Assembly (NCBI RefSeq): GCF_900636965.1
Contig: NZ_LR134331.1
Coordinates: 1,798,001 to 1,862,000 of the forward strand
Source: Lacticaseibacillus rhamnosus
GTDB lineage: Bacteria > Bacillota > Bacilli > Lactobacillales > Lactobacillaceae
Reading direction: 5' to 3'
DNA: 64,000 bases
Part shown: piece by piece, positions 5,286 to 61,090 of the stretch
Position numbering within the stretch: position 1 is the first letter of the stretch
Layout of the letters: the number at the start of each line of letters is the position of its first letter
Made by a program: the position numbers and the translations under genes
The notes under the pieces: generated by a model
What the model saw: only the letters and a program-made list of their open reading frames with translations
Database searches by the model: none
Told to the model about the DNA's origin: nothing

Positions 5286-5433
5286 GTGAGCGCGAGCCAG
5301 CCCGGTTAGAAACCGGAGTGTAAGCGGCCTCAGACGTGATGGCCCGCTCTTGGCCATTGCGGCTGTGGTCCTTACACTCCGGTTTCTGGGCTGGGGAGCG
5401 CGTTATAGAAAGTGAGCGTGAACCGGCTCCCGC
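5286..5433. repeat. Palindromic repeat locus 1 (one copy plus fragment)
   Basis: The full copy spans 5286-5406. Its outer arm CCAGCCC pairs with GGGCTGG, then a 4-nt bulge GGTT sits on the left strand, then a perfect 17-bp arm (AGAAACCGGAGTGTAAG) and an inner hairpin closed by GGCC/GGCC. A fragment with the left end of another copy (GTGAGCGTGAACCGGC) spans 5411-5433 and runs to the purH stop codon. This is the only copy inside an operon (purH-purD). Confidence 0.9.
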
Positions 5434-6957
5434 TTAATGCCGGAAATGCCGAACCCCTGTTGTCACCATCGCAATGCCATATTCATTGGCCTTCGCAATT
5501 GAATCCTTATCCCGAATGCTGCCACCCGGTTGAATAATCGCCTTAATATCATGTTTAGCCGCGTAATCCACGCAATCATCCATCGGGAAAAAGGCATCGC
5601 TGGCCATGACCGCACCGGCAAAGTTGTCGTTTTGCTGCGCTTGGGTTAACGCCAATTCAACCGAGCCAATCCGATTCATTTGACCGGCGCCAATCCCTAA
5701 CGTCTGATCAGCCTGTGCCACGACAATCGCATTACTCTTAACATGTTTGACCACCGTCTGCGCAAATGCCAATGCCTTGAGTTGAGCTTCAGTCGGCTTG
5801 ACCTCCGTTACCACTGTCATATCGGCTGGTGTCTCAGCTTTGTCGTCACGTGTTTGAATCAACAACCCACCATAAATTGAAGTCGTTTCTGTTCCCAATT
5901 CTTCTGGCGTATCAGCAGTATTAATCGTCAATAAGCGCACATTTTTCTTCTTCGCCAGAATCTCATAGGCATCATCATCAAATGCCGGTGCCATGATGAT
6001 CTCAAGGAAAAGTTTATGCATTTTCTCGGCAGTGGCAAGATCAACCCGCCGATTCAAAGCAATGATGCCGCCAAAAATGGACATCGGATCGGCGGCATAT
6101 GCCTTGTCCCAAGCGGCTTCAAGCGTATCGCCCAAGCCAATGCCGCATGGGTTCATATGTTTAACGGCCACGGCTGCCGGTTGTTTGAATTCCCGCAACA
6201 TTGCCAATGCTGCATCCGCATCCTTGATATTGTTATAAGAAAGCTCTTTACCGTGTAATTGCTTAGCAGCGGCAAGACTAGTTGGATCAGGATTCGGCTC
6301 AACATAAAAGGCAGCTTGTTGATGGCTGTTTTCCCCGTAACGCAAGTCCTGCCGTTTGTGATAAGTTGGCGTGAATTGCTCTGGGAATGGCTCTGGATCT
6401 AAGTAATGGGCGATTTGAGCATCGTAAGCTGCAGTGACGGAGAAGACTTTGGCTGCCAACCGTTGCCGCAAATCAGCATCATTTTGATCGAGTCCGGCTA
6501 AAACATCCGCATAATCTGCTGGATCAACCACGGCCCAGACACTGTCACTATTTTTAGCTGCCGCACGTAACGCAGACGGGCCACCAATATCAATTTGTTC
6601 AATCGCTTCGGCACGCGTCACACCCGCACGCTGAATGGTCGCGGCAAACGGATAAAGATTGACACAAACCACATCAATTGGCTGAATATCATGATCTGCT
6701 AGTGCCTGCATATGGGCAGGATCATCCCGCCGCGCCAAGATGCCGGCATGGATCTTAGGATGCAGTGTCTTAACTCGACCATCGAGCATTTCTGGAAAAC
6801 CGGTTACTGCTTCTACGCCGGTCACCGCAACCCCAGCTTCAGCCAGTGCGCGATGGGTACCACCGGTTGAAATCAGTTCAAAACCGCGTTCAACCAGACC
6901 TTTTGCAAAAGGTACCAAACCAGTTTTATCAGAGACACTTAATAATGCACGCTTCAC
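5434..6957 (-). CDS. purH: Bifunctional AICAR transformylase / IMP cyclohydrolase
   Basis: A protein of 507 residues carrying both last steps of IMP synthesis. The N-terminal IMP cyclohydrolase (MGS-like) domain starts [20 protein letters not shown] and includes STGGT and [14 protein letters not shown]. The C-terminal transformylase holds the AVKHMNPCG segment around residue 265, with the catalytic Lys-His, and ends TTGVRHFRH. The start is GTG at 6957, immediately after the purN stop (TAAGTG), with AAGGAG eight bases before it. Translation is probably coupled to purN. The repeat-containing gap to purD follows. Confidence 0.97.
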
Positions 6958-7527
6958 TTAAATCGCTCCTTCTTCAATGAGTTGCTTGACAGTTGCGGGA
7001 AAAGTTTGATGTTCCTGATGGTGAATGGCTGCTTCTAATTGTGCCAGCGTCATCCCCGGGCTTACGCGGACCGGATCCTGTGCGATGATTTCGCCGGTGT
7101 CGATTCCGGCATCTACGTAATGAACCGTCACGCCGGTCACTTTGACGCCATAATCAAACGCATCTTTAATGCCCTGCCGTCCGGGAAAACTAGGCAGCAG
7201 CGCGGGATGCAAATTGATAATTCGCTTGGGAAAAGCATTTAGCAAGGTTGGCCCGATGATCCGCATATAACCCGCTAAAATCAATGCATCTACAGGCGGC
7301 AACTGGCTTAAAATATAAGTTTCGGCCGCCGCTTTATTCGCATAGTCCTTAAAGTTCACAACTAAAGTCGGAATATGACGAGCAGCCGCTTTTTGAATCA
7401 CCGGTGCTTGCATTTGATCACAGACTAAGACCGCAATTTGATAGTGACTGTCTACAGCCTGCGCGGCGTTTGCCAAGGCTTCAAAATTTGTGCCATTTCC
7501 GGACGCAAAGACAGCTAGACTTTTCAT
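6958..7527 (-). CDS. purN: Phosphoribosylglycinamide formyltransferase
   Basis: With the ATG at 7527 the protein has 189 residues, usual for PurN, and begins MKSLAVFASGNGTNFEAL, which carries the family's SGxGTNF signature. The folate site appears as NLHPALLPSFPG and the catalytic Asp region as HYVDAGIDTGEII. It transfers a formyl group from 10-formyl-THF to GAR (step 3). The start overlaps the purM stop as ATGA, so a longer upstream start is unlikely. Part of the pur operon. Confidence 0.96.
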   Translation of the reverse strand: MKSLAVFASGNGTNFEALANAAQAVDSHYQIAVLVCDQMQAPVIQKAAARHIPTLVVNFKDYANKAAAETYILSQLPPVDALILAGYMRIIGPTLLNAFPKRIINLHPALLPSFPGRQGIKDAFDYGVKVTGVTVHYVDAGIDTGEIIAQDPVRVSPGMTLAQLEAAIHHQEHQTFPATVKQLIEEGAI

Positions 7528-8534
7528 TTGCTTGCCACCTGCCATTGTATTTTGGCGCTTGGATCAGCAACCACGTGACCGATGACTTTGCTGCTTGGTA
7601 ACGCCGCCTGAATCGTGGTGGCTGCATGTTCCGGGACGACCAAAATCATCCCGATGCCCAAATTAAACGTTGTCCGCATCGTGGTTTCACTCAAATGCCC
7701 GGCATGTTGCAGGCGATCAAATAACTCCGGTCGATGCCATGCCTGGGGATTAACCTGCGCACACAATCCTGCCGGTATCACCCGCGGTAGATTCTCGGTA
7801 ATACCGCCGCCGGTAATATGCGCTGCGGCGTGGATCAAACCTTGTTGCATGAGCGGCAGCACCTGCTTAACGTAAATTCTGGTTGGCCGCATCAACGCCT
7901 GCATGACTTCCGATCCGTCTTCAAGCGTCTGACTCCCTAAATCAGTTTCAGCTAACAATTTACGCACCAGCGAGTAACCATTGCTGTGTACGCCTGAACT
8001 TGGCAAGCCAATCAAGACATCACCAGCAGCCACATCCTTAGGCAAACGATTCTGTTCGGAAACCAAACCAACCGCAAACCCGGCCAGATCATAATGATTT
8101 TGTGGGTACATATCCGGCATCTCAGCGGTTTCCCCACCGATCAACGCCATTTCCGCCTGCTGACAGCCATAAGCAATCCCGCGAACAACCGCTTCGGCCC
8201 GGGTTACATCAAGATGATCAACGGCCATGTAATCAAGGAAAAATAATGGCTGGGCACCGGATGCGAGCAAATCATTGGCCACCATTGCGACCAAATCAAT
8301 CCCCACCGTTTCATGCGCATCACATTGCAATGCCAACAACAGTTTGGTACCAACCCCGTCTGTCGCACTAATCAAGGTTGGCTGCGGCACGGATGGCAAC
8401 CGATAAGCGGCAGCAAAACCGCCAACACTGGCCAAAACATTGTCATTGGCTGTTTCTTTGGCTAACGTTGCAATACGTTTTACGGCTGCATCGCCGGCTT
8501 CAATGTCGACGCCGGCATCCTTATAATCTGTCAT
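7524..8534 (-). CDS. purM: Phosphoribosylformylglycinamidine cyclo-ligase (AIR synthetase)
   Basis: A 336-residue PurM. It opens DYKDAGVDIEAGDAAVKRI, contains ATDGVGTKLLLA (ATP-binding loop), GGETAEMPDMY and HITGGGITENLPRV, all hallmark blocks. It cyclises FGAM to AIR (step 5). The start codon overlaps the purF stop in ATGA and its own stop overlaps the purN start in ATGA, so three genes are translationally linked. Confidence 0.97.
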   Translation of the reverse strand: MTDYKDAGVDIEAGDAAVKRIATLAKETANDNVLASVGGFAAAYRLPSVPQPTLISATDGVGTKLLLALQCDAHETVGIDLVAMVANDLLASGAQPLFFLDYMAVDHLDVTRAEAVVRGIAYGCQQAEMALIGGETAEMPDMYPQNHYDLAGFAVGLVSEQNRLPKDVAAGDVLIGLPSSGVHSNGYSLVRKLLAETDLGSQTLEDGSEVMQALMRPTRIYVKQVLPLMQQGLIHAAAHITGGGITENLPRVIPAGLCAQVNPQAWHRPELFDRLQHAGHLSETTMRTTFNLGIGMILVVPEHAATTIQAALPSSKVIGHVVADPSAKIQWQVASK

Positions 8535-9985
8535 GCGCTAACCTCCGCTACATTAACTTTGAGTGATGCGACTTCCTTATTTAACGCCGGTGCATAATCA
8601 TCAAGAGCAGTTGGATATTTGCCTGTAAAGTAGGCGACACATAAACCGCCATTAGGAGCCGTCGTTGGCAATCCGACGCTTTCTTCCAAGCCTTGTGTCG
8701 AAAGAAAGCCTAGCGATTCGACATCCAGTAAATCGCGCATTTCCGGTACGCTATGATTAGCCGCAAATAATTCACTAGTTGTCTGAAAATCAATCCCATA
8801 AAAGCAAGGAAAGCGCAGTGGCGGGCTGGCAATTCGCAAATGCACTTCAGCGGCGCCGGCTTCTTTCAACAATTTAACGATTTGCTTAGAAGTCGTGCCG
8901 CGAACAATCGAGTCATCAACTAACACAATGCGTTTTCCGGCAACAACCGGTTTGATCACGCTGAGTTTCATTTTGACGCTTTTTTCGCGTAACGCCTGCG
9001 TGGGTTGGATAAATGTCCGAGCAACGTACTGACTCTTCACCAAGCCCATTTCATAAGGAATTCCGCTGGCTTTGGCATAACCAATCGCTGCTGACAGGGA
9101 TGAGTTGGGCACCCCAACGACAATATCCGCATCTGCCGGCTGTTCCCTTGCCAACCGCTCACCCATCCGCACCCGCGCCTGGTGAACATTGATGCCGTGG
9201 ATGTCTGAATCCGGACGGGCAAAATAGATATACTCCATCGAGCAAACCGCTAACGATGTGTTGGTGGTGAAGTGATCCAAATGCAAGCCATCGTCATCGA
9301 TCGTAATCAGCTCACCGGGTTGGATGTCACGGACAAAATCAGCCCCTACTGCATCCAACGCCGCGGTTTCGCTACAAACAATATAGCCGCCATCTGGCAT
9401 GACCCCAACCACCATTGGCCGGAAACCATGCGGATCAACCGCTGCGTATAAGCCATGCTCGGTTAACAAGACAAAGGCGAACCCGCCGTGAACTTCATTC
9501 AGTGCCTTTTTAAGTTGAACCAGCCACGGTTGGCCAACCTGACGCCGAATCAAATGCATTAAAACCTCAGTGTCCGAGGTGGATTGGAAAATGGCCCCTT
9601 GACTTTCTAACTCACGCCGCAAACTGATGGCGTTGGTTAAATTGCCGTTATGCGCCAATGCAATGGCTTCATCAGAAAACCGAAAAAGCAATGGCTGTAT
9701 ATTTTCCAAGACGCGGCCGCCTGCTGTCGAGTAGCGCACGTGACCCAAAGCTGCCCGCCCCATCAACGGTGTCAATTGATCGGTATTGGTGAACACTTCA
9801 CTGAGCAAGCCCAGACCATAATGGCGCCGCATACCATCTTTAGTTAAGCCGACAATTCCGGCCCCTTCTTGCCCGCGATGTTGCAGCGTATGCAAGCCCA
9901 GATGGGTAATGCTCGCAGCATTGGGATTGCCCCAAATACCAAAAACACCGCATTCTTCATTTAAGCCTTTTGGTTCAGATAGCAT
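8531..9985 (-). CDS. purF: Amidophosphoribosyltransferase
   Basis: A 484-residue PurF, committing PRPP to purine synthesis (step 1). The sequence starts [16 protein letters not shown]. The 11-residue propeptide before Cys12 is the kind removed to free the N-terminal nucleophile cysteine of the Ntn-type glutaminase. The PRPP-binding loop reads VLVDDSIVRGTT. Four cysteines that could ligate a structural Fe-S cluster as in Bacillus PurF were not mapped. The gene overlaps purL by 25 bp; the start is kept because the propeptide would otherwise be lost. Confidence 0.96.
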   Translation of the reverse strand: MLSEPKGLNEECGVFGIWGNPNAASITHLGLHTLQHRGQEGAGIVGLTKDGMRRHYGLGLLSEVFTNTDQLTPLMGRAALGHVRYSTAGGRVLENIQPLLFRFSDEAIALAHNGNLTNAISLRRELESQGAIFQSTSDTEVLMHLIRRQVGQPWLVQLKKALNEVHGGFAFVLLTEHGLYAAVDPHGFRPMVVGVMPDGGYIVCSETAALDAVGADFVRDIQPGELITIDDDGLHLDHFTTNTSLAVCSMEYIYFARPDSDIHGINVHQARVRMGERLAREQPADADIVVGVPNSSLSAAIGYAKASGIPYEMGLVKSQYVARTFIQPTQALREKSVKMKLSVIKPVVAGKRIVLVDDSIVRGTTSKQIVKLLKEAGAAEVHLRIASPPLRFPCFYGIDFQTTSELFAANHSVPEMRDLLDVESLGFLSTQGLEESVGLPTTAPNGGLCVAYFTGKYPTALDDYAPALNKEVASLKVNVAEVSA

Positions 9986-12183
9986 GGGAGTGCCTCCTCA
10001 AATGCAGTTTGCAATTCTTCAAGCGGAACCGAAAATTGATGACTAACCGTGGTGACGTCAAATTGCGGGGCTGCTTGTACCCGCCCGATTAACTCAGCCG
10101 GTCCATTTAGCGCCTCAAACGCTGCTTGATCTTCAGGAGCAACGGTGACTAAGAACCGCCCTTGAGTCTCGGAAAAGCCCCAACTCGTCGGCAAATCGAC
10201 CTTAACTTGCGCGCCCAGCTGGTTCGTAAAGCCCATTTCAGCCAACGCCACTAACAAGCCACCATCGCTTAAATCGTGGGCTGCTGTCACAAGGTGTTGC
10301 CGAATCGCCGTTAATACAAATTGCTGATTGGCCTTTTCCGCATCGAGATCAAAGTCGAACAACCGCCCGGCAACTTCACCGGTTTGCAATTTCTGTAATT
10401 CGCTGCCATTGAAATCGCCGTGGGTTTCGCCGACAAGATAAAGCAAATCATCTGCATGTTTGAAATTCGCCGTGGTAATGGTGCTGAGATCTTCAATCAG
10501 CCCCACCATCCCAATCATCGGCGTTGGATAGATTGCTTTGCCATTAGTCTCGTTATAAAGCGAAACATTTCCGGAAATCACCGGTGCGTTAAAGGCTTTA
10601 GTCGCAGCAATGATACCTTTAGCTGCTTCGGCAAGTTCATAAAACGCTTCCGGCTTGGTCGGATCCCCAAAATTCAGGCAGTCGGTAATCCCTAAAGGTT
10701 CCGCACCGCTGGCCGCCAGATTGCGCGCCGCTTCGGCAACACTCATGGCCGCACCGACTTTTGGATCCAAATACAGATAACGGCCTTTGCTATCGGTGGT
10801 CATGGCAAGAGCGCGATGGGTCCCGCGAATGCGAATCACCGCGGCATCGCTACCAGGCAAGACAACCGTATTCGTTTGGACTTGTGCATCATAACGCCGA
10901 TACAATGAAGACTTATCCGCAATCGTCGGCGTGCCCATCATGGCTTTCCAAGTCGCCACCGGATCAGTCACAATCGGGTCAAAATCAGGTGCCGGTTCAG
11001 CTAAGCGCGCTGGCATTTTGCCGACTTGCTCATAAATCGGTGCATCATCAGTCAATGAACTGACTGGAACATCGCAAACCAATTTGCCGTGATGATAAAG
11101 TCGATATTGATGGCCTTCAATCACATGTCCCACAACTGCAGCGTCCAAATCATACGCTGCAAACACATCAAGGACTTCCTGTTCAAAACCGGCCCGCACA
11201 CACAACAACATCCGTTCCTGCGATTCTGATAACATGATTTCAAATGGCGTCATATTGGCTTCACGCTGTGGAATTAAGTCAAGATCCATTTCCATGCCGC
11301 TATTCGCCTTGCCAGCCATTTCAACACTGGAAGACACTAAACCAGCCGCGCCCATGTCCTGAATACCGACTAGTGCCTGTTGATGATCCTGCGTAATTTC
11401 CAGGCACGCATCCATCAACAGTTTCTCCATGAATGGGTCGCCTACCTGAACCGCCGAACGATCAGCCGCCTCTTCATCGGAAAAATCACCAGAAGCGAAA
11501 CTAGCGCCGTTAATCCCATCACGCCCGGTTTTGGCACCGACATAAATCAGTGCATTACCGACTCCTGCCGCTTTGCCTTTTTGGATCTGATCCTTATCCA
11601 TAATGCCGACACACATCGCATTGACCAGTGGATTGCGGGAATAAGTGTGATCAAAATTGGTTTCTCCGCCGACCGTGGGAATGCCGATTGCGTTCCCATA
11701 GCCACCGATACCGGCCACGATGCGATCAACTAAATGCTGCGTGTGCGGGAGGTTGAGATCACCAAAGGCCAATGAATCCAGCATGGCAACAGGCTTAGCC
11801 CCAATCGAGAAAATGTCGCGGATAATGCCGCCAACACCCGTCGCTGCGCCTTCATAAGGTTCAACCGCGGACGGATGGTTATGACTTTCGGCTTTGAATA
11901 CCACTGCCTTGCCTTCGCCGATATCAATTACACCGGCACCTTCGCCAGGTCCCATCAAAACGCGGTCATTTTTGGTCCAGAACTGGCGCAAAATCGGCTT
12001 ACTGTATTTATACGCACAGTGTTCACTCCACATGCCGCTTGCTAATCCGATTTCGGTATCATTTGGCTGATGACCAATCAACTCAGCAAACCGGTGATAC
12101 TCATCTTCCGTCAATCCCAAAGCCAAATACGGTTTCTTTTCAGCGATGGCTTCTGGACTCATCTCAACGTGCGTCACGGACAT
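9961..12183 (-). CDS. purL: Phosphoribosylformylglycinamidine synthase, large subunit
   Basis: A 740-residue small-form PurL, as found in Gram-positives that also have purS and purQ. Visible blocks include [14 protein letters not shown] near the N terminus, [34 protein letters not shown] and [17 protein letters not shown]. It uses ATP and ammonia delivered from PurQ to make FGAM (step 4). It overlaps purQ upstream by 20 bp and purF downstream by 25 bp. Start ATG has AAAGGGG just before it. Confidence 0.97.
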
Positions 12184-12850
12184 GGACCCCTTTCGTTTGT
12201 TGCATCAATGACTTGAAAACGCCTAGGCCATCCGTACCGCCAAGTAATGCTTCAACGGCGCGTTCCGGATGCGGCATCATGCCTAAAACATTACCGGCTT
12301 CGTTCGTCACCCCGGCAATATCATGAAGACTGCCATTGGGATTGTCAGCATACCGGAAAACGACCTGACCATTGGCTTCCAAAGCTGCCAGCGTCTTGGG
12401 ATCGGCGTAATAATTTCCTTCACCATGTGCAATCGGCAATGTCAGTTGTTCACCAACCTGATATTGATTGGAAAATGCTGTATCCGCGCGATCGACAAGC
12501 AACGTCACCGGTTCGCAAATGAAATTCAAATCCCGATTCCATTGCAAAGCGCCCGGCAGCAGACCCGCTTCGGTCAGAATCTGAAAGCCATTACAAATGC
12601 CCAACACATAGCCGCCTGCTTCGGCAAAAGCTTTCAACGCCGTCATCACTGGCGAAAACCGGGCAATCGCACCGCTACGTAAATAGTCACCGTAAGAAAA
12701 ACCACCTGGCACCATCACCACATCATAACGACTTAAATCGGTTTGACTCGGCTTGATCAGCTCGCACTCAGCACCGGCAATGGTCTGAACGGCCCACTGT
12801 AAATCCAAGTCACAATTAGATCCGGGAAAAGAAATAACGGCCGCTTTCAT
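12164..12850 (-). CDS. purQ: FGAM synthase, glutaminase subunit
   Basis: A 228-residue class I glutamine amidotransferase. It starts [17 protein letters not shown]. The oxyanion strand [18 protein letters not shown] is followed by the nucleophile elbow GICNGFQ, with Cys near residue 87, and the His-Glu pair sits in [10 protein letters not shown]. It supplies ammonia to PurL in a complex with PurS. Start overlaps the end of purS as ATGA. Confidence 0.97.
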
Positions 12851-13107
12851 GCCTCATCCTCCGTAATGGGTTCTAATTCAAAGCGATAAGTTTCCATGTT
12901 GACATTGGCAAGCAACTGATCGCAAATCGTATCGACTTGCTTTTCTACCGCTTCTTTGGTGCCGGTCAGCTTTAATTCAAAATATTTGCCGTACAACACA
13001 TCGTCTACATTGTGATAATCCATGCGGGTCAAAGCAGTCTTGATAACTTCTGCCTTTGGGTCTAATACAGAGGGTTTGTACGTCACATAAACTTTAGCTT
13101 TAAACAT
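12847..13107 (-). CDS. purS: FGAM synthase, PurS subunit
   Basis: With the ATG at 13107 the protein has 86 residues, the normal PurS size, and starts [17 protein letters not shown]. The [10 protein letters not shown] segment and acidic tail are typical. PurS bridges PurL and PurQ and helps channel ammonia. A longer frame upstream would run into purC. The chosen ATG lies in ATGTTTAA, which overlaps the purC stop by 8 bp. Confidence 0.94.
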
Positions 13108-13828
13108 GAGCCGCTCCTTTTTCTTGTAACCTGGCAAGCACTTCTTCATAAACAGGGGTTAAGGGACCGCGCGCTTGGCGGAAAACATCTTTATCAAGCG
13201 AATCACCGGTCTTTTGATCAACCAGACGGAAGTTATCCGGTGACAATTCATCGGCTAAGACCAAAGTGCCATCCGTTAACGTGCCATATTCAAGTTTAAA
13301 ATCAACCAACGTGATCCCGACTTCATCAAAACGCTTGGTCAGATAAGCATTCACGCGATCAGTCAAAGCCCGAACTTGTTTGAGCTGTTCCGGGGTCGCT
13401 TCGTGTAAAGCAAAAATCTGGGCTTCGTTCATGAACGGATCGCCTAATTCATCCGACTTGTAATAATATTCATGAATTGGCGGATCAAGCTTCATCATCG
13501 GCTTGACATTGAACTTGGTCACAAAATGTCCGGACGCGTAATTGCGCACCACAACTTCTAACGGCAGCATGGTCGCCTTTTTAACAATCATGGTAGTGGC
13601 ATCGGGAGAATCAATATAATGCGTAGGAATTCCGGCTGCCGTCAATTCTTTAAACAACAAGGTCGAGATGGCGCGATTCAATTCACCTTTGTGGGCAATC
13701 TGCGCCTTTTTCTCGCCGTTTAATGCTGTGGCCTGATTCGTATACGTCATCCATAAAACATCCGGATCATCTGTTGCAAAAACCTGCTTGGCCTTGCCGG
13801 TATATAGTAATGTGGTCTTTTTCACCAT
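13100..13828 (-). CDS. purC: SAICAR synthetase
   Basis: A 242-residue PurC joining aspartate to CAIR (step 8, before the lyase step). Blocks seen are LLYTGKAKQVFAT at the N terminus, EVVVRNYASGHFV in the middle and LVLADELSPDNFRL further on. The start ATG overlaps the purK stop (ATGGTGA) and has GGAGGCAGC just upstream, inside the purK coding region. Adenylosuccinate lyase (purB), needed next, is not in the window. Confidence 0.97.
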   Translation of the reverse strand: MVKKTTLLYTGKAKQVFATDDPDVLWMTYTNQATALNGEKKAQIAHKGELNRAISTLLFKELTAAGIPTHYIDSPDATTMIVKKATMLPLEVVVRNYASGHFVTKFNVKPMMKLDPPIHEYYYKSDELGDPFMNEAQIFALHEATPEQLKQVRALTDRVNAYLTKRFDEVGITLVDFKLEYGTLTDGTLVLADELSPDNFRLVDQKTGDSLDKDVFRQARGPLTPVYEEVLARLQEKGAAHV

Positions 13829-16262: not shown

Positions 16263-16313
16263 AAAAAAAGCCTCCCAGTGAATCCCCACTCACAAAGAAG
16301 GTCGTTTCCGACA

Positions 16314-16398
16314 TTCACAAATCCCTACGCTCGCACTAACGAACAGGTTCGAAGGGTCCGGGTCTCCCCGCTCTCAGCCAATGGCTCCCCTTTGTGAA
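16314..16398 (-). promoter_or_regulatory. TPP (THI-element) riboswitch
   Basis: On the minus strand P1 is TTCACAAA pairing with TTTGTGAA (16391-16398 with 16314-16321). Inside are the hallmarks GGGGAGCC, GGCTGAGAG, GAGACCC, GAACCTG and a distal GTGCGAGCGTAGGGA. The aptamer ends about 50 nt before the thiT ATG. A second CTTTGTGA downstream could compete for the 5' P1 strand. Seven T directly after the Shine-Dalgarno leave open whether control is translational or by termination. Confidence 0.93.
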
Positions 16399-16470
16399 GG
16401 TTCATCTAATTAATTGATACATTGTCATCGTACCAGACTTTATAAAAAGCGCAAACATTTTGTCCAGAAC

Positions 16471-16829
16471 AGAGCGTGAGCCAGCCCGGTTAGAAACCGG
16501 AGCATAAGTGGCCTTGAGCGTGATGACCGGGTTTTGGTCATTGCGCTCAAGGTCCTTATGTGCAGGTTTCTGGGCTGGCGAACGCGTTTATGAGCGTATA
16601 CTGGAGCGCTTAGAAACCGGAGCATAAGCGGCCTCAGACGTGATGGCCGGGCTTTGGCCATTGCGGCTGAGGTCCTTACACGCAGACTTCTGCGCCGGCG
16701 AACGCGTTTATGAGCGTTTACTGGAGCGCTTAGAAACCGGAGCATAAGCAGCTTTGAGCGTGATGGCCTCCTCTTAACCATTGCAGTGTGATCCATACAT
16801 CCAGCTTTCTGCGCCATGAAGCACGTTAT
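16471..16829. repeat. Palindromic repeat locus 2 (three tandem copies)
   Basis: Three copies occur in exact 120-bp register at 16471, 16591 and 16711. The first is intact: CCAGCCC/GGGCTGG outer arm, GGTT bulge, AGAAACC/GGTTTCT, CCTTGAGCG/CGCTCAAGG and GACC/GGTC. The second has the left half of one arm type and the right half of the other (AGAAACC opposite GACTTCT), so its arm is mispaired. The third has decayed. The locus lies between the MFS gene and the thiT riboswitch. The 16263-16921 gap holds otherwise only the TPP riboswitch. Confidence 0.9.
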
Positions 16830-30461: not shown

Positions 30462-30598
30462 ACTTAACCCGCTTTCTAAAATTCCGTGTTTCATTATAAC
30501 AAACCTCATGAAAATACGACAGCGCGTAAGTAAGTCGGACGGCGGTAAGTGTCAACTTTTCCTCGGTTCTACTCTCATTATGTGATTTCCGATACTCC

Positions 30599-30753
30599 GA
30601 GCTGGCTCCGCGGTGGCTGGGCTGGAACGTGGTGGGCACGACTTCGAACCCGCAAAGACCGCGGTTTCGAAGCTCGGCCTTGGTCTAAAGCGGAGAAGCC
30701 CACTCCGCTTAAGACCAATTTCACCACTGAGCCCGCCACCGCTCCGCCAGCTC
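30599..30753. repeat. 155-nt GC-rich palindromic element with two inner hairpins
   Basis: The ends GAGCTGGC and GCCAGCTC are perfect inverted repeats, and the next 20 bases pair almost fully (GCGGTGGC with GCCACCGC). The two long arms enclose two further hairpins. One is at 30642-30672 (CTTCGAA..CCGC with GCGG..TTCGAAG) and one at 30680-30718 (16-bp arms with one mismatch). The whole is a three-way junction. No coding frame fits. It is distinct from the 120-bp repeat family. The 30462-30938 gap holds nothing else recognisable. Confidence 0.75.
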
Positions 30754-41828: not shown

Positions 41829-42090
41829 GTGAGCGCGAGCCGGCGCGGTTAGAAGTCGGAGTGTAAGTGGCCTTGGGCGTGATGACCGCTTTTTGGTCAT
41901 TGCGTCCAAGGTCCTTACACGCAGACTTCTGCGCCGGGGAGCGCGTTATGGTGAGCGTGAGCCAGCCCGGTTAGAAACCGGAGCATAAGTGGCCTTGGGC
42001 GTGATGACCGGGCTTTGGTCATTGCGTCCAAGGTCCTTATGTGCAGGTTTCTGGGCTGGCGAACGCGTTATGGTGAGCGCGAGCCGCCCA
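41829..42090. repeat. Palindromic repeat locus 5 (two copies plus end fragment)
   Basis: Copy one (41829-41949) has the CCGGCGC/GCGCCGG and AGAAGTC/GACTTCT arms; copy two (41951-42071) has CCAGCCC/GGGCTGG and AGAAACC/GGTTTCT. Both have CCTTGGGCG/CGTCCAAGG and GATGACC/GGTCATT, so the G-to-A change in the inner stem is compensated. A left-end fragment (GTGAGCGCGAGCC) lies at 42073-42090. The locus occupies the upstream region of thlA, in the gap between divergent genes. Confidence 0.93.
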
Positions 42091-44148: not shown

Positions 44149-44450
44149 GTGAGCGTGAGCCAGCCCGGTTAGAAACCGGCGCATAAGTGGCCTTGGGCGT
44201 GATGACCGGGCTTTGGTCATTGCGCCCAAGGTCCTTATGTGCAGGTTTCTGGGCTGGCGAACGCGTTATGAGCGTGAACCGGCGCGCTTAGGGATCGGAG
44301 TGTAAGTGGCCTTGGGCGTGATGGCGCCTGGGCTTGGCCATTGCGGCTGAGGTCCTTACACTCCGATCCCTGCGCCGGTGAACGCGTTATGGTGAGCGTG
44401 ATCCGACTTCTGCGCCGGGGAGCGCGTTATGGTGACCGCAAGCCGCCGCG
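44149..44450. repeat. Palindromic repeat locus 6 (two copies plus remnants)
   Basis: Copy one (44149-44269) has CCAGCCC/GGGCTGG, AGAAACC/GGTTTCT and a fully Watson-Crick CCTTGGGCG/CGCCCAAGG. Copy two (44269-44391) has CCGGCGC/GCGCCGG with a perfect 17-bp second arm beginning AGGGATCGG. A remnant (44393-44431) fuses 10 bases of a left end to the right arm GACTTCTGCGCCGG. A further decayed left end is at 44432-44450. The locus lies between two divergent genes (Mrr-like and epimerase-like). Confidence 0.93.
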
Positions 44451-47569: not shown

Positions 47570-47829
47570 ACCGCTGAGGCCGCTTGTGTTCTGGCTTACG
47601 CCCTTTTAACGCGCTTACCGGCGCAGAAGTCTGCGTGTAAGGACCTCAGTCGCAATGGCCAAAGCCCGGCCATCACGCCTGAGGCCACTTGTGTTCTAGT
47701 TTACGCCCATAACGCGCTCACCGGCGCAGAAACCTGCGTGTAAGTACCTTAAGCGTAATGGCCCAAGCCCGGCCATTACGCTTAAGGCCACTTACACTCC
47801 GGTTTCTAAGCGCGCCGGTTCGCGCTTAG
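47570..47829. repeat. Palindromic repeat locus 7 (reversed copies)
   Basis: All copies here read on the minus strand. 47710-47829 is a full copy with CCGGCGC/GCGCCGG, AGAAACC/GGTTTCT and CCTTAAGCG/CGCTTAAGG arms. 47607-47712 is a short variant whose left half is replaced by a stretch reading GGGCGTAAACTAGAACACAA, so only the inner stem and right arm remain. 47570-47606 is a fragment of the same short variant. The locus lies between the ECF gene start and the tRNA promoter. Confidence 0.9.
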
Positions 47830-52040: not shown

Positions 52041-52044
52041 CAAT

Positions 52045-52236: not shown

Positions 52237-52265
52237 AAGGTACATGAGTAAACATTTCATGTCAA
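52237..52265 (-). promoter_or_regulatory. Promoter of the trpXYZ-type operon
   Basis: TTGACA (52260-52265), 17 bp, TACCTT (52237-52242) on the minus strand. The -35 is consensus. The start site would be some 40 nt before the leader peptide ATG. Confidence 0.6.
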
Positions 52266-52271
52266 GAAAAA

Positions 52272-52709: not shown

Positions 52710-52769
52710 GAAAAGCACGAATCCTCTCTTAAGCACGTGGTTGTCAGTGCTGACCTGCCACTTTGTTTT

Positions 52770-55433: not shown

Positions 55434-55467
55434 AATAGTGCCTCCTTCTTTCTTTGGGCCGGTAGCC

Positions 55468-55605
55468 AAAAAGAGACTTATGGCCTACCAGCAGTAGATC
55501 CATAAGTCTCACTATTTAAGACAACACCAGACATAGCCTTGTTGGTGACGTTGTCGCAGATATGCTCTGCTAGTTACTCCCCTAGGTTGAGTAAAGTATA
55601 TCAGG
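55468..55605 (-). promoter_or_regulatory. yybP-ykoY (Mn2+) riboswitch with terminator
   Basis: On the minus strand the aptamer contains AGGGGAGTAACTAGCAGAG (about 55569-55587), a GCAGAGC..TCTGC arm, and a second arm GACAACGTCACCA facing TCTGGTGTTGTC, the paired-loop layout of this class. An expression platform follows. GAGACTTATGG pairs with CCATAAGTCTC (55473-55510), followed by five T, a terminator that Mn2+ binding would be expected to prevent. It precedes the ATPase start by about 35 nt. Confidence 0.87.
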
Positions 55606-55635
55606 TCTAGGCAGGCTTACGCAAGTTCCTGAGTA

Positions 55636-55930
55636 GTGAGCGCGAACCGGCGCGGTTAGAAGTCGGAGTGTAAGTGGCCTTAAACGTGATGGCCCGGGTT
55701 TGGCCATTGCGTTTAAGGTCCTTACACGCAGACTTCTGCGCCGGTGAGCGCGTTATGGGCATAAAACAGAACAAAACGGCCTCAAACGTGATGGCCGGGC
55801 TTTGACCATTGCGCTTGAGGTCCTTACACGCAAGTTTCTGCGCCGGTGAGCGCGTTATGGGCATAAAACAGAACAAAGTGGCCTCAAGCATGATTGCCGG
55901 ACTTTAGCCACTGTAGCTAAGATCCTTTCG
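55636..55930. repeat. Palindromic repeat locus 8 (one full, one short, one decayed copy)
   Basis: 55636-55756 is full: CCGGCGC/GCGCCGG, AGAAGTC/GACTTCT, CCTTAAACG/CGTTTAAGG. 55757-55859 is the short variant with left half GGGCATAAAACAGAACAAA and only inner stem plus right arm. 55860-55930 begins the same way but has decayed. It lies between the ATPase riboswitch and the 3' end of the serine hydrolase gene. Confidence 0.92.
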
Positions 55931-55947
55931 ATTTTAATCAAGCTCAC

Positions 55948-57108
55948 TCACCCCAACGTTTGAAATAAATGCACTGCCAGATCATGCAAATTTAGCGCAT
56001 GTGAATTGTAATTACTTAACAGGATGATCGCATTTTGACCATCGTGACTGATTGCAGTCGATGCCATTTGACCAGCGACAACGCCATGAGTTGAATAAAA
56101 ATCTTGATGATTATAGATGCCGGCTGTATAAACGCCATCGTCACGGTTGCGCAACGTCTTCAAAGCGGACAAAGTAATCACTTTGCCGCTGTCTATCCCG
56201 CGCAATAGCCGATAAAGATCACCAGTCGTCGTATACATGTTGCCGGTACCGAGCTCGCGGTTATACCATAACTCCGGTTCGCCGATAAAAGTCTGATAAG
56301 GATTGGTGACGGGACCTGTATACGTTAAAGAACGGTTTGAATCTGTCAGCATCGCCGGTAAAAAGCCGGTGTGCTTAAGCTTTAGGCGTTCAATAATATC
56401 GTTTTTTACTTGTTGTTCATAGGATCGCCCGGCGACTTTCTCGATCACACCGGCTAGTAAAAGATAGTTCACCGGTTGATAGGCATAGTTTTGTTGTGGC
56501 AAATAGGTCATGTTGGCAATGGCCCAACGGATAATATCCATATCACCCATCACGGCAGGTTGATACTTCTTAAGGGCAAAACCGCTGCGCATGTCAATCA
56601 TCATCCGCAATGTTACTTGATCGCCAGTTTGGATGCCTGACAAATACTTGCTAACCGGATCGTCTAATCGTAACTTGCCAGCTTCAACCAGCTGCATCAC
56701 GGCAACTGCGGTAATTGCTTTTTGAATCGAGCCAATTTGAAACAAAGTCGTCGGTCCATTAAGCCGCTGCGATGCTTGATCGGCGTAACCCACACCACCG
56801 TTGAAGATGACCTTACCATGTTGAATCACCAAAGCACTGCCGATAAATTTGTCATTGGTCAAGGCCTCTGAAAAAGATTGGCCTGCTTTGGTTTTAACCG
56901 AACGATCCAATTTTTCGTCAAATAACGCTGCTTGTGTCTTGGCCGTATCTTTGCGCGTTACTTTTTCACGATACTTTGATGGCTTGACCCGTGCCTGACG
57001 TTGTGAAGCTGAATGATCTTGCTGCCAGCCAAGAACAGTCCCACCTAATAGCAATGCAGCCAACCCCAAAACAACGCCCACCCAAATCATTTTTCGACGA
57101 TGCAACAC
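55948..57108 (-). CDS. Serine hydrolase, beta-lactamase/class C PBP-like, membrane-anchored
   Basis: A 386-residue protein with an N-terminal anchor (KMIWVGVVLGLAALLLGG) and an extracytoplasmic beta-lactamase-like domain. The SxxK motif is GSIQKAI, the YxN motif is YQPVNYLL, and the third motif region reads STHGVVAGQ. Likely acts on cell-wall peptides or another D-amino-acid substrate. Start is taken as GTG at 57108 (GGGAGG eight bases upstream); a weaker ATG at 57135 is possible. It is a close paralogue of the gene at 58047-59243. A terminator separates it from nadE. Confidence 0.82.
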   Translation of the reverse strand: MLHRRKMIWVGVVLGLAALLLGGTVLGWQQDHSASQRQARVKPSKYREKVTRKDTAKTQAALFDEKLDRSVKTKAGQSFSEALTNDKFIGSALVIQHGKVIFNGGVGYADQASQRLNGPTTLFQIGSIQKAITAVAVMQLVEAGKLRLDDPVSKYLSGIQTGDQVTLRMMIDMRSGFALKKYQPAVMGDMDIIRWAIANMTYLPQQNYAYQPVNYLLLAGVIEKVAGRSYEQQVKNDIIERLKLKHTGFLPAMLTDSNRSLTYTGPVTNPYQTFIGEPELWYNRELGTGNMYTTTGDLYRLLRGIDSGKVITLSALKTLRNRDDGVYTAGIYNHQDFYSTHGVVAGQMASTAISHDGQNAIILLSNYNSHALNLHDLAVHLFQTLG

Positions 57109-57157
57109 GTTTTCATCCTCCCATTTATTGCTCATCAAAGATACCTTAAAAGCAGAC

Positions 57158-57216
57158 AAAAAAACAGCCACGACCCTCAATAAAAGCAAAAATTTCATTG
57201 AAGTTAGCTGTTTTTT
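57158..57216 (-). terminator. nadE terminator
   Basis: AAAAAACAGC pairs with GCTGTTTTTT, with an inner TTCAAT/ATTGAG stem. It begins just after the nadE stop and ends in T on the minus strand. Confidence 0.8.
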
Positions 57217-57219
57217 GGG

Positions 57220-58047
57220 TTATTTCCAAAATGTATCGAAAACAGTGATTGGCAAATGTCGTTTGTGAGCAGTCTTCTGGTACCAACGCTCGATGGTTTC
57301 AGCAGCTTGGTCGCTAACTTGTTTGCCTTCAAGATAGTCATCAATATCGTGATACTTAACCCCAAGCGCCACTTCATCTGGCAAGGCCGGGCGATTGTCT
57401 TCAAGGTCGGCTGTTGGCGCCTTTTGATACAAATGAGCAGGTGCCCCTAGCGTCTTCAACAATGCCGCGCCTTGCCGTTTGTCTAACCGGTAAAGTGGGG
57501 TCAGATCCGCACCGCCATCACCGAACTTGGTATAAAAACCAGTGACGGCCTCAGCTGCATGATCGGTTCCGATCACGGCCCCTGCCATGTTGCCGGCAAT
57601 CGCATACTGAGCAATCATGCGCATCCGGGCTTTAATATTGCCCTTGTTGAAATCAGAAATAGCCGCACCATTGGCTTCAACAGCACTTACCATCGCATCA
57701 ACACTTGGTTTGATATTAACCCGTTTAACCACATCGGCTTGCATAAACTCGATGGCCGCCATCGCATCCGCTTCATCGGCTTGTTCACCATAAGGCAGGC
57801 GCACTGCTACAAACTGATAAGTATCGTCACCGGTTTCTGCCCGCATCTCCTGCATCGCCTTTTCGGTTAACGTTCCGGCAAGCGTCGAATCCTGCCCACC
57901 GGAAATGCCAAGGACATAAGTTTTTAAAAAGGTATTCTTCTTAAGATAGGCTTTTAAAAAATCGACACTCCGGCGAATCTCTTTTTCCGGATCAATCGTT
58001 GGCTTGACACCTAATGCTTTAATAATTTCTGCTTGTAATGGACGCAT
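57220..58047 (-). CDS. nadE: NH3-dependent NAD+ synthetase
   Basis: A 275-residue NadE of the ammonia-using kind without a glutaminase domain. The PP-loop is [11 protein letters not shown] (about residues 45-55); [22 protein letters not shown] and [15 protein letters not shown] follow. It amidates nicotinate adenine dinucleotide to NAD+. Its start overlaps the stop of the upstream serine hydrolase by one base (TAATG). With pncB upstream it forms an NAD salvage operon; nadD is not in the window. Confidence 0.96.
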
Positions 58048-59243
58048 TATTTCACTCCTTTAATCATATCAAGAAATAGACTTTGTGCGAGATCTCGCGT
58101 TATCTGACCGGCATTAGCCATGAGAACCACTGCATTCTGCCCGCTACTATCCATCACCGTTGCCGCCGAGTGTGCTGCCACAACGCCATGCGTCAATGTG
58201 TAGCTGCCAAAATTATAAACCCCGGCTGTATATTGACCTTGACTTAAATCGCGTAATTGCATGACGGCGGATCGACTAATAATTTTACCTTGGTTAATTC
58301 CGGCCATAATCTGATATAAGTCACCGGCACTAGCATAAATATTACCGGTGCCCAACTCGCGGTTATAACTCAATGCTGGCTCGATATAACGCTTTGAATA
58401 CGGATCAGCCTTGGGACCATTATAGCCAAAAGCCTGATTTTGTTCACGATATAATTCAGGCATGAATCCTGAATGAGTCAAGGCTAGCCGCTTAAAAATT
58501 TCCTGTTGAATCAAATCAGCATATAAGCGGCCGGTAACTTTTTCAATGACACCCGCTAATAACACAAAATTAACCGGTTGATAATCATACCGAGGTGTTT
58601 CGTAATTCAAGTTGGCAATTGACCAGCGAACAATGCCGGCATCGGAAAGTTTTGCCGGTTGCGCACGAGGTAGCGTTAGCCCGCTGCGCATATCCAGCAT
58701 CATTCGCAATGTCACCTTCTTGCCAGTACGAATCCCGGTAAAATAGTGACCGATCGGATCGGATAGTCGCACCTTGCCTTGTTCAACCAGTTTCATCAAA
58801 AGCACTGCCGTCAGTCCTTTTTGGATTGAACCAATTTGATACAGTGTCTCGGGACCGTTTAAGCGCCCCGAGTCTACATCCGCATAACCCAGACCGGTAT
58901 TAAGTATGACCTTACCCTTGCGCATCATCAAAACCGTCCCGCTAAAATGCGCCGCCTGCAATTTTGCCAATAGCGGCTTAGCATCCGGCGAGTCAACTGG
59001 TTGCATCAATTTATTAGTGGTACCGGTATCGGCTTTTGCCTGGTTTTGCAGCCGCTGCTCAATTGCGCGATGGCGATTCAGCTCGGTTTCATATTGACGC
59101 CGCGCACGCTCTTCCTTGGCGGCTATCTGCGGACGAACATACAAATAATCATAACTGCCATAAATCGCAATGCCGGCGATGACCCCGATAACAAGGCCTA
59201 ACAACAGCCACCGGCCCCAACGCCGCTTTTTTGTCTGTCTCAC
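58047..59243 (-). CDS. Serine hydrolase, beta-lactamase/class C PBP-like, membrane-anchored
   Basis: A 398-residue paralogue of the 55948-57108 product. It has a basic start ([11 protein letters not shown]), one membrane helix ([17 protein letters not shown]), a charged linker of about 50 residues, then the hydrolase domain with GSIQKGL (SxxK), YQPVNFVLL (YxN) and LTHGVVAAH. Start is GTG at 59243 with GAGGAAATAGC before it. It lies 13 bp after pncB and overlaps nadE, so it is translated within an NAD salvage operon. The link between the two functions is unexplained. Confidence 0.85.
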
Positions 59244-59256
59244 GCTATTTCCTCGA

Positions 59257-60723
59257 TTATTCTTCGCGATCAGCCACTGCAGACTTCACTTTTTTAATCA
59301 AATCCATCTTGTTATCCCAAACCCGCTGCGATAGATCAACCGGATAATCTTGTGGATTCAAAATTCGCCGATACTCATCCCACAGCGCGTTGGTACTGCG
59401 CGTTGCATAAGCCTGAACGTCGGCTAGCGGCGGGGTTTGATAAACCTGCTTTCCCTGATCATAAATAAGTTGAAGTAACGGCTTGGCCTCAAAATTCTTA
59501 ACCGTCTTATTGATATATGGAAAATTCGGATGAAACATATACAAACTACGCTCTGGATCAATCACTTCGTCTGCCAGTGCCACATAATCACCTTCAGACT
59601 TGCCATCATCACGCCGCGTAATTCGCCAGACTTGTTTTTTGCCAGGCGTCGAGACTTTTTCTGCATTATTAGACAGTTTGATCGTATCGTGCATCTGCCC
59701 AGTGCTGTCTTCAATCGATACCAGCTTAAACACAGCACCCAACGCTGGTTGATCATAAGCCGTAATGAGGCGAGTTCCGACTCCCCAAATGTCGATTTTG
59801 GCGCCTTGCATCTTCAGATTTTGGATGGTGTTTTCATCAAGGTCGTTTGAAGCGTATATTTTGGCAGAAGTATAACCGGCATCATCTAACTGCTGCCGAA
59901 CACGCTTGGAAATAAACGCCATATCACCACTGTCGATGCGCACGCCGAGAAAATTGATTCGATCTTTAAACTCATTAGCGACTTTGATCGCAGCAGGCAC
60001 GCCTGATCGCAACGTATCATAAGTGTCAACTAAAAAGACCACGTCGCGATTACTTTCGGCATAGGCCTTAAAAGCCTCATAGTCATTACCATATGCCTGG
60101 ACCAATGAGTGCGCATGCGTGCCACTGATCGGAATGCCAAATTCCTTACCTGCTAACACGTTACTTGTAGCATTAAACCCGCCAATATACGCCGCCCGTG
60201 TGCCCCACAAAGCTGCCGCCGTCTCCTGTGCCCGCCGCGTCCCGAATTCCATGAGCGGATCAGCACCGGCCACACTACGAATCCGCGCTGCTTTCGTTGC
60301 CACAAGCGTTTGATAATTAATCATATTCAAAACCGCGGTCTCGACCAACTGCGCCTGTGCCAGCGGACCTTCAATCTGCCAAATCGGCTCATTATTAAAA
60401 ACCAAATCGCCTTCCAGCGCCGAACGAACGGTACAGGTAAATTCAAAATGACGTAAATAATCAATAAACGCATCCGAATAATCGGTCTGGGACTGAAGAT
60501 AAGCCAAGTCGGTTTCCGAGAACTTGAGATGATTCAAGTAATCAATCACATGCTCTAACCCGGCAAAAACCGCAAATCCCGAACCAAAAGGCAACTCACG
60601 AAAGAAAACTTCAAAAACAGCATGACGTTCACTGATTCCACGTTCAAAAAAAGTGTTCATCATATTCAATTCATAAAAATCGGTGTGGAGTGTCAATCCT
60701 TCACCCAATTGTGTGGTCATCAT
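59257..60723 (-). CDS. pncB: Nicotinate phosphoribosyltransferase
   Basis: A 488-residue enzyme. It starts TQLGEGLTLHTDFYELNMM. The phosphorylated-histidine region is ISGTHAHSLVQAY, and GVRIDSGDMAFISKRVR is the PRPP/substrate strand. MEFGTRRAQE is also conserved. It makes nicotinate mononucleotide from nicotinate and PRPP with ATP. First gene of an operon pncB-hydrolase-nadE. A -10 TATAAT (about 60800 on the minus strand) lies upstream. Length is normal for the Firmicute form. Confidence 0.95.
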   Translation of the reverse strand: MMTTQLGEGLTLHTDFYELNMMNTFFERGISERHAVFEVFFRELPFGSGFAVFAGLEHVIDYLNHLKFSETDLAYLQSQTDYSDAFIDYLRHFEFTCTVRSALEGDLVFNNEPIWQIEGPLAQAQLVETAVLNMINYQTLVATKAARIRSVAGADPLMEFGTRRAQETAAALWGTRAAYIGGFNATSNVLAGKEFGIPISGTHAHSLVQAYGNDYEAFKAYAESNRDVVFLVDTYDTLRSGVPAAIKVANEFKDRINFLGVRIDSGDMAFISKRVRQQLDDAGYTSAKIYASNDLDENTIQNLKMQGAKIDIWGVGTRLITAYDQPALGAVFKLVSIEDSTGQMHDTIKLSNNAEKVSTPGKKQVWRITRRDDGKSEGDYVALADEVIDPERSLYMFHPNFPYINKTVKNFEAKPLLQLIYDQGKQVYQTPPLADVQAYATRSTNALWDEYRRILNPQDYPVDLSQRVWDNKMDLIKKVKSAVADREE

Positions 60724-60825
60724 CTTTCCCCTTCCAGAGACATACTAATGGGAGCCATCGTTAAGCATTGAGCATTTAATTTAATAATATAGCTATTGAT
60801 TATATACTAAGTGGGCAATAATTGC

Positions 60826-61090
60826 AGAGCGCGAACCGGCGCGGTTAGAAACCGGAGTGTAAGTGGCCTTAAGCGTGATGGCTGGGCTTTGGCCATTGCG
60901 CTTAAGGTCCTTACACGCAGGTTTCTGCGCCGGTGAGCGCGTTATGGGCGTAAGCTAGAACACAAGTGGCCTTGGGCGAGATGGCCGGGCTTTGGTCATT
61001 GCGTCCAAGGTCCGTATACGCGGATCTCTGCGCCTGCGAACGCGTTATTGTAAAAGCGTGAACGGCGCTTACACACGGCTTCTAAGCTGG
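60826..61090. repeat. Palindromic repeat locus 9 (full, short and fragment)
   Basis: 60826-60945 is full: CCGGCGC/GCGCCGG, AGAAACC/GGTTTCT, CCTTAAGCG/CGCTTAAGG. 60946-61048 is the short variant starting GGGCGTAAGCTAGAACACAA, the same left half as at locus 7. 61053-61090 is a decayed fragment. The locus fills the gap between the pncB promoter and the nagR terminator; nothing else was recognised in 60724-61191 apart from these. Confidence 0.92.

What the first reader, a model, noticed from the sequence alone, without database searches (positions are those of the whole stretch)
5286..61090. A ~120-bp hairpin repeat family at nine intergenic loci
About twenty full, short or decayed copies of one palindromic element occur in 64 kb, in both orientations, always between genes. 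Shared ends are GAGCG(T/C)GA at the left and GAACGCGTT or GAGCGCGTT at the right. Copies lie after genes, in divergent promoter regions (loci 5, 6, 7) and within an operon (locus 1), so a simple terminator role does not cover all sites. It could be a REP/BIME-like or MITE-like element mobilised in trans, or a functional RNA/DNA structure. The density is high for a chromosome without other mobile DNA here.
Basis: seen in the sequence. Interest (0 to 1): 0.8.

Follow-up and report, generated by a model that had tools for sequence, protein, structure and literature searches.

The report
Hairpin repeats scattered through lactobacilli genomes
A 119-base DNA hairpin with a strictly kept shape sits at more than a hundred places in this lactic acid bacterium, between genes wherever we checked, is present at some sites and missing at the same sites in sister species, and what moves it is unknown: two likely enzyme types were searched for and not found here.

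Summary
The window holds 14 full units of one 119-nt hairpin plus about ten short or decayed ones, at nine intergenic loci. The genome (Lacticaseibacillus rhamnosus by elimination) has at least 150 full units in 115 clusters (150 is a scoring cap). Matches occur in 48 of 201 genomes of the family. Shape is kept better than sequence: diverged copies fall to 30% identity, yet 92.6% of pair cells form, with strong covariation. The same strand folds better whether it is sense or antisense to the left-hand gene (34 of 34 copies). Orthologous sites are a mix of occupied, remnant and empty. Left ends sit beside T-tracts, A-tracts or anti-Shine-Dalgarno stretches more often than background.
Best reading: a REP-like, non-autonomous mobile hairpin recognised as single-stranded DNA by an unidentified enzyme. 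It fails REP membership here: 119 nt, no GTAG tag, no Y1 transposase in three of five rich genomes. No named match in Rfam or nine paper searches.

The parts
5288..5406 (+). locus 1, full unit (inside a co-directional gene pair, 19 nt from the start codon of the leftward gene)
   Evidence: (121.5 bits)
5413..5430 (+). locus 1, left-end fragment
   Evidence: read from sequence
16472..16590 (+). locus 2, full unit
   Evidence: 134.8 bits
16592..16710 (+). locus 2, full unit
   Evidence: 106.6 bits
16712..16829 (+). locus 2, decayed unit
   Evidence: 34 bits
18457..18575 (+). locus 3, full unit
   Evidence: 135.5 bits
18581..18699 (+). locus 3, full unit
   Evidence: 134.5 bits
18701..18819 (+). 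locus 3, full unit
   Evidence: 122 bits
37902..38020 (-). locus 4, full unit
   Evidence: 131.5 bits
37871..37897 (-). locus 4, ends-only remnant (centre missing)
   Evidence: read from sequence
41831..41949 (+). locus 5, full unit (site also occupied in L. casei, L. zeae, L. chiayiensis; decayed copy in L. paracasei)
   Evidence: (133.1 bits)
41953..42071 (+). locus 5, full unit
   Evidence: 134.6 bits
42075..42090 (+). locus 5, left-end fragment
   Evidence: read from sequence
44151..44269 (+). locus 6, full unit (divergent gene pair; no element at this site in four sister species)
   Evidence: (134.6 bits)
44270..44390 (+). locus 6, full unit
   Evidence: 116.3 bits
44394..44430 (+). locus 6, ends-only remnant
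   Evidence: read from sequence
47709..47827 (-). locus 7, full unit
   Evidence: 130.2 bits
47606..47708 (-). locus 7, short unit (outer 5' arm missing)
   Evidence: 54.1 bits
55638..55756 (+). locus 8, full unit
   Evidence: 136 bits
55757..55858 (+). locus 8, short unit
   Evidence: 34.3 bits
55859..55930 (+). locus 8, decayed short unit
   Evidence: (D3)
60827..60945 (+). locus 9, full unit
   Evidence: 137.4 bits
60946..61048 (+). locus 9, short unit
   Evidence: 47.3 bits
61054..61090 (+). locus 9, decayed left-end fragment
   Evidence: read from sequence

Best explanation
A non-autonomous mobile hairpin. One strand (here called forward, set by the conserved ends) folds, when single-stranded, into a fixed shape: 4-bp foot, GA/GA loop, 7-8 bp, a 4-nt 5' bulge usually ending in TT, 7 bp, a 3x3 loop, 7 bp, a one-base bulge, about 19 bp, and a 5-7 nt loop. 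A recombinase acting in trans (not identified) most likely recognises this shape on single-stranded DNA. It places the element with its left end beside the T-tract of a terminator, beside an A-tract, or just upstream of a Shine-Dalgarno site. Copies then multiply in tandem, lose their centres by internal deletion, and exchange inner segments with other copies. Shown: shape conservation with covariation; strand asymmetry that does not depend on gene direction; occupied, remnant and empty sites between species and between plasmids; non-random left flanks; internal deletions; several stem variants mixed within one array. Inferred: that the asymmetry reflects single-stranded DNA, that an enzyme in trans does the moving, and that spread has continued since L. 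casei and L. zeae parted.
For: Covariation in the 14 window units: 68 doubly changed cells against 26.5 in shuffles, 15 pairs with double change against 11.8 (the structure came from one of these units). In 24 diverged matches: 356 doubly changed cells against 110.9, covariation score 0.886 against 0.217 shuffled and at most 0.161 slid, 41 of 46 pairs with double change against 36.6 (alignment fitted to this model; 15 of the 22 non-casei-group loci that the searches returned went in, 13 from other Lacticaseibacillus species and 2 from other genera). Forward strand folds better in 34 of 34 own-genome copies, 17 sense and 17 antisense to the left-hand gene, and in 12 of 12 window units (34 of 39 non-window clusters were used). 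In stems 2-4 of 62 of 64 units, G.T pairs 26 against A.C 5. Window loci: 31 comparisons with sister species possible, 11 occupied, 20 without a model match at E 0.01. Of 20 L. casei clusters: L. zeae 11 occupied, 3 remnant, 1 empty, 5 unresolved; L. chiayiensis 7, 1, 5, 7 (spacing; eight sites aligned). The L. casei copy at L171 is missing from L. zeae and by spacing from L. chiayiensis. A plasmid multicopper-oxidase site is filled in L112, L113, L120, L121 and empty in L118 and L119, with about 95% identity outside. Left flanks (n=50): T5 17, A4 16, anti-SD 13, ending GT 36; backgrounds 4.1%, 10.8%, 5.2%, 5.5%. TnpA-REP is published as strand-specific for single-stranded hairpins with bulges (PMC8266576, passages).
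Against: No enzyme: Y1 transposase and reverse transcriptase are absent from this genome, L. casei and L. paracasei; other recombinases were not searched. No excision or insertion was seen directly. No target duplication could be read. Among the L. zeae sites that could be scored, 11 of 15 are occupied, so turnover is slow. The 34 copies are relatives, so their common strand preference may be inherited and is not 34 independent results; in the 20 diverged copies (forward lower in 20) the strand was chosen by the model itself. Orientation relative to replication is not clearly biased (47 of 115 clusters, p=0.06 with a terminus at 1.3 or 1.49 Mb; 50 of 115, p=0.19 at 1.6 Mb; origin assumed at coordinate 1). 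The left-flank background was not matched for distance to genes, so nearness to gene edges could produce part of the T-tract and Shine-Dalgarno excess. Strain-level chromosomes were not available; genes at the window loci are mostly 70-86% identical between species. The regions between four close element pairs encode what I recognise as ordinary genes.
Confidence: 0.5

Rival explanations
1. A cis-acting RNA element: copies are kept because the transcribed hairpin protects, processes or attenuates neighbouring messages.
For: Strong RNA-type covariation and G.U pairs; 13 of 50 left flanks carry an anti-Shine-Dalgarno stretch; copies inside PTS operons on plasmids; locus 5 occupied in all five casei-group species, decayed in one.
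Against: The better-folding strand is antisense to the left-hand gene in 29 of 48 clusters and sense in 19, with the same asymmetry in both. Many copies follow what looks by eye like an intrinsic terminator, where they would hardly be transcribed. 20 of 31 orthologous sites lack a match. No transcript data were available.
Confidence: 0.18
2. No mobilising enzyme at present: old copies spread long ago, and today's pattern comes from deletion, tandem slippage, recombination between copies and horizontal transfer.
For: No candidate enzyme among the two families searched; frequent remnants; 11 of 15 scorable L. casei sites are occupied in L. zeae; one plasmid site holds two subtypes in near-identical flanks (L108 against L110), as recombination between copies would give.
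Against: The L171 site looks like a gain in L. casei; the plasmid multicopper-oxidase site is filled in some and empty in other close relatives.
Confidence: 0.14
3. A classical MITE moved by a double-strand-cutting transposase of a resident IS that shares its ends.
For: Size, intergenic position, copy number, inverted-repeat character.
Against: No target duplication readable at the sites aligned; conserved bulges and strand-specific G.T pairs are not needed by such an enzyme; the outermost bases are not exact inverted repeats. Not excluded: I did not list the IS elements of the genome.
Confidence: 0.12
4. A retro-element: the hairpin RNA is copied by a reverse transcriptase in trans, with terminator-side insertion as group IIC introns do (recalled).
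For: 17 of 50 left flanks hold a T-tract of five or more within 14 nt; RNA-like structure; L. chiayiensis and L. zeae each have one RVT_1 hit, the latter with an internal stop.
Against: No RVT_1 hit in this genome, L. casei or L. paracasei; no intron match in Rfam in the window; left flanks also include A-tracts without a terminator.
Confidence: 0.06

Closest known systems
REP / BIME / REPIN with TnpA-REP (RAYT), E. coli and Pseudomonas
   Same: High-copy intergenic imperfect palindromes, clusters, bulged hairpins recognised on one strand of single-stranded DNA (PMC8266576, passages; PMC3116915, abstract).
   Different: 119-nt multi-stem unit instead of 20-40 bp; no GTAG inside the window units; no Y1 transposase in three of five copy-rich genomes; left ends beside T-tracts, A-tracts or Shine-Dalgarno sites.
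ERIC / IRU elements of enterobacteria (recalled; RU-1 of 127 bp in the start of the abstract of PMC2759123, listing; that RU-1 is ERIC is recalled)
   Same: Similar size, palindromic, intergenic, no known transposase (recalled).
   Different: Other bacteria; neither shape nor sequence was compared here.
BOX, RUP and SPRITE of Streptococcus pneumoniae (named in PMC10969869, passages)
   Same: Small intergenic repeats of a Gram-positive genome that cluster; SPRITE resembles terminators.
   Different: No sequence or structure comparison made; the present element is a single long hairpin with fixed bulges.
Integron attC sites (recalled; IntI named as a folded-ssDNA enzyme in PMC8266576, passages)
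   Same: Works on folded single strand, shape more than sequence, strand chosen by extrahelical bases (recalled).
   Different: No RYYYAAC/GTTRRRY box pair at the ends; no cassette genes seen.

Membership tests
REP / BIME | GTAG (or CGTC) tetranucleotide next to a 20-40 bp palindrome | tested here: not met
   No GTAG inside the 14 full window units; one lies just outside a unit, at 55633-55636. Some units elsewhere read GGGTAG at the bulge, not at the foot. Unit is 119 nt. CGTC not counted. Definition from title and start of abstract of PMC3733652 (listing).
REP / BIME | TnpA-REP (Y1_Tnp, PF01797) gene in the genome | tested here: not met
   0 hits in own genome, controls ring in 5 of 14; 0 in L. 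casei and L. paracasei, 7 in L. chiayiensis, 1 in L. zeae; 13 of 30 genus genomes have one.
REP / BIME | Strand-specific hairpin with conserved bulge or mismatch | tested here: met
   with the caveat that the model chose the strand.
REP / BIME | High copy number, intergenic, clustered | tested here: met
   At least 150 units in 115 clusters; 0 of 48 clusters with a through-going frame.
MITE | Target-site duplication | tested here: inconclusive
   None readable at 8 L. casei sites and one plasmid site; most flanks too diverged.
MITE | Autonomous IS with the same ends | not tested
   Only Y1 and reverse transcriptase were searched; regions between four close element pairs held ordinary genes as I recognise them.
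Group II intron derivative | Intron RNA domains or maturase | tested here: not met
   No Rfam intron match in the window; no RVT_1 in own genome.
Integron attC | R boxes RYYYAAC / GTTRRRY (recalled) | tested here: not met
   Left ends GAGCGYGA lack AAC; by inspection.
Any Rfam 15 family | Covariance-model match at gathering score | tested here: not met
   Of 6 matches up to E=5 only TPP and tRNA pass gathering, neither in an element; MIR5274 at 44280-44378 has 28.7 against 100 bits.

The most novel reading that the evidence does not exclude
A class of mobile hairpins of Lactobacillaceae defined by shape and not by sequence, moved on single-stranded DNA by a recombinase that is neither a Y1 transposase nor a reverse transcriptase, and targeted to the outer edges of genes (terminator T-tracts and the stretch before the Shine-Dalgarno site).
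Probability: 0.28. Interest if true: 0.85.

Novelty: new variant of a known kind. Interest (0 to 1): 0.6.

Why it matters
As I recall, copy-rich palindromic repeats are best known from proteobacteria that carry RAYT genes. Here is a family with at least 150 copies in one genome of widely used food and probiotic species, without that gene in three of the five richest genomes, with a very well-defined shape and a marked taste for gene edges. It offers a clean test of whether another enzyme can spread hairpin DNA, gives markers for strain comparison, and puts a strong hairpin beside the start or end of many genes (plasmid PTS operons, a thiamine riboswitch leader, a tRNA gene) where Rfam sees nothing.

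Tried and rejected
RAYT partner: not found in this genome. Reverse transcriptase partner: not found in this genome. Autonomous long version: open frames between four close element pairs (L021, L047, L011, window 16.8-18.5 kb) read as ordinary genes; this is my own recognition, no family search was run. Replication-strand bias: not significant, not used. Phage origin: no match in 50,697 phage records with one query; one contig with an exact internal pattern among 2.9 million viral contigs, not followed. Target duplication: looked for, none convincing. Literature: nine searches and look-ups inside ten papers (term finds; one section of PMC3792948; abstract and outline of PMC3116915) gave no description of this repeat in lactobacilli. 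Subscription papers are mostly not held, so a printed description may exist.

Weak points of my counts. The 50 left flanks were picked by hand from 86 left-end matches: units preceded by another unit and stray matches were dropped, and at least two kept ones follow a fragment. The background is this window's intergenic positions (14,402, both strands), not matched for distance to genes. Gene context uses a crude open-frame caller; L025 and L035 look misplaced. In one search, 34 of 39 non-window clusters were folded for the sense/antisense comparison (L005, L022, L025, L033, L059 left out). In one search, 62 of 64 units were kept by a filter that asks for at least 6 of 7 pairs in stems 3 and 4, so its pairing counts are not a test of pairing. 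Occupied or empty rests on the spacing of flank matches except at the eight sites aligned. 'No match' at window loci means no model match at E 0.01; small remnants may be missed. The diverged alignment A5 used 15 of 22 loci.
Full report
WHAT IS THERE. A de novo repeat search of the window finds one family of 12-15 copies per reference in both orientations (D1-D4). A covariance model from 14 full units (119 positions, 46 pairs) gives 33 matches in the window: the 14 units themselves at 106-137 bits, four short or decayed ones at 34-54 bits, the weaker opposite-strand reading of all 14, and one stray at 18.4 bits. Folded as RNA, three units give about -80 kcal/mol forward against about -60 to -69 reverse. 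The anatomy is a 4-bp foot GCGY/RCGC, a GA/GA loop, an 8-bp stem, a 4-nt 5' bulge (GGTT or GCTT), a 7-bp stem, a GGA/GCA loop, a 7-bp stem, a one-base bulge, a stem of about 19 bp with G.U pairs, and a loop. Arrays hold full units (spacing 119-124) and short units (about 103, without the outer 5' arm).

HOW WIDE. Two of these match published chromosome lengths of L. casei ATCC 393 and L. paracasei JCM 8130 (PMC3792948, section 7 part 1); two match contig lengths of L. chiayiensis and L. zeae. The window's genome is therefore taken as L. rhamnosus by elimination; no call names it. In the family, 48 of 201 genomes (own included) and 17 of 40 genera have a match at E 1e-6, with 18 candidates scored per genome and strict filters. 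Plasmids: 25 of 72,556 records, from Lactiplantibacillus, Pediococcus and Lacticaseibacillus. Phages: none of 50,697; viral contigs: one exact pattern hit.

SHAPE RATHER THAN SEQUENCE. Within the window 15 of 46 pairs have changes on both sides (11.8 in shuffles) and 68 cells do (26.5 in shuffles); the structure was taken from one of the units. In 24 diverged matches (23 distinct, pairwise identity down to 0.30, median 0.47) 92.6% of cells pair, 41 of 46 pairs change on both sides (36.6 shuffled), and the covariation score is 0.886 against 0.217 shuffled and at most 0.161 slid. That alignment was fitted to the model, which favours the structure; the slid controls keep relatedness. Thirteen of its 15 source loci come from other Lacticaseibacillus species and two from other genera, so shape conservation beyond the genus was read at two loci only. 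The 5' bulge ends in TT in most of these rows. The forward strand folds better in 34 of 34 own-genome copies, 17 with a left-hand gene running towards the element and 17 with one running away, and in 12 of 12 window units. It does so in 20 of 20 diverged copies too, but there the model chose the strand. In stems 2-4 of 62 of 64 full units there are 26 G.T and 5 A.C pairs. Because the same asymmetry holds whichever strand a neighbouring gene would transcribe, I infer that it is imposed when the element is copied or moved as a single strand. The copies are related, so part of this may simply be inherited.

WHERE IT SITS. Of 48 clusters, the left neighbour is a gene start in 29 and a gene end in 19. 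The left flank is not random: of 50 first-in-array flanks, 17 have five or more T within 14 nt (background 4.1%), 16 have four or more A (10.8%), 13 carry an anti-Shine-Dalgarno stretch within 22 nt (5.2%) and 36 end in GT (5.5%) (background not matched for distance to genes). Many of the T-tract cases look by eye like plain intrinsic terminators. No cluster of 48 interrupts an open frame.

TURNOVER. At the nine window loci 31 comparisons with sister species were possible: 11 occupied, 20 without a model match. Locus 6 has no element in any of the four; locus 5 is occupied in all four (decayed in L. paracasei); locus 1 is occupied in L. casei and L. chiayiensis in the opposite orientation. Conversely L. 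casei, L. chiayiensis and L. paracasei carry a copy where the window has none, near 51.9-52.0 kb. Of 20 L. casei clusters, L. zeae has 11 occupied, 3 remnant, 1 empty and 5 unresolved (several at contig ends); L. chiayiensis 7, 1, 5 and 7 (spacing; eight sites aligned). At L171 the element sits straight after a T-tract in L. casei and is absent from L. zeae and, by spacing, from L. chiayiensis. On plasmids the multicopper-oxidase site is filled or empty in relatives about 95% alike; the mannose-PTS site has two units plus an ends-only remnant (L104), one unit (L105) or the remnant alone (L117, L123); the PTS IIB-IIC site holds two clearly different subtypes in near-identical flanks and, in L115, a copy reduced to its right end. 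Ends-only remnants show decay by loss of the hairpin centre. Stem variants occur in many combinations across the 62 units, though not at random: GCATAAG in stem 4 goes only with AGAAACC in stem 3, 8 of 8. This is what some exchange between copies would give.

MECHANISM AND RIVALS. I favour a trans-moved single-strand hairpin (0.50). TnpA-REP works that way (PMC8266576, passages), but that enzyme family is missing from three of the five copy-rich genomes, and reverse transcriptases are missing from the same three. The step 'enzyme in trans' is inference. The cis-RNA rival explains the covariation and the Shine-Dalgarno cases but not the terminator cases, the strand result or the empty sites. 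The MITE rival lacks a readable target duplication and a partner, though the genome's IS elements were not listed. A reading in which no enzyme is active today remains open.

KNOWN OR NEW. Nothing in Rfam 15 matches at gathering score, and nine paper searches plus look-ups in ten papers did not describe it (listed under Tried and rejected). I call it a new variant of a known kind: it works like REP-type palindromic repeats but fails two defining tests of that family.

Noticed in passing
window 30590-30750 (+): A second palindromic element, not of the main family (R1 gives only 18.4 bits there): 10 near-full copies in the genome, 7 of them at 96-100% identity; it looks younger.
   Followed up: partly
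window 16304-16401 (-): A TPP riboswitch (61.5 bits) lies between repeat array 2 and the next gene on that strand.
   Followed up: no
window 55468-55586 (-): Sub-threshold match to Streptococcus sRNA SSRC10 (40 against 56 bits), beside locus 8.
   Followed up: no
L065 (L. suilingensis by contig-set identity) 1501-1619: The best copy in this genome has the flanks of the PTS IIB-IIC site of lactobacillus plasmids, so it probably came in by plasmid.
   Followed up: no
L186 12544-12564 (-): The only viral contig with the internal pattern; whether it is a prophage edge was not checked.
   Followed up: no
L097 1913-2031 (-): L. chiayiensis has a copy between the orthologues of window genes 42699 and 43563; L. 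zeae has a possible remnant there (L099 7509-7549, 26.5 bits); no match in the window, L. casei or L. paracasei.
   Followed up: no
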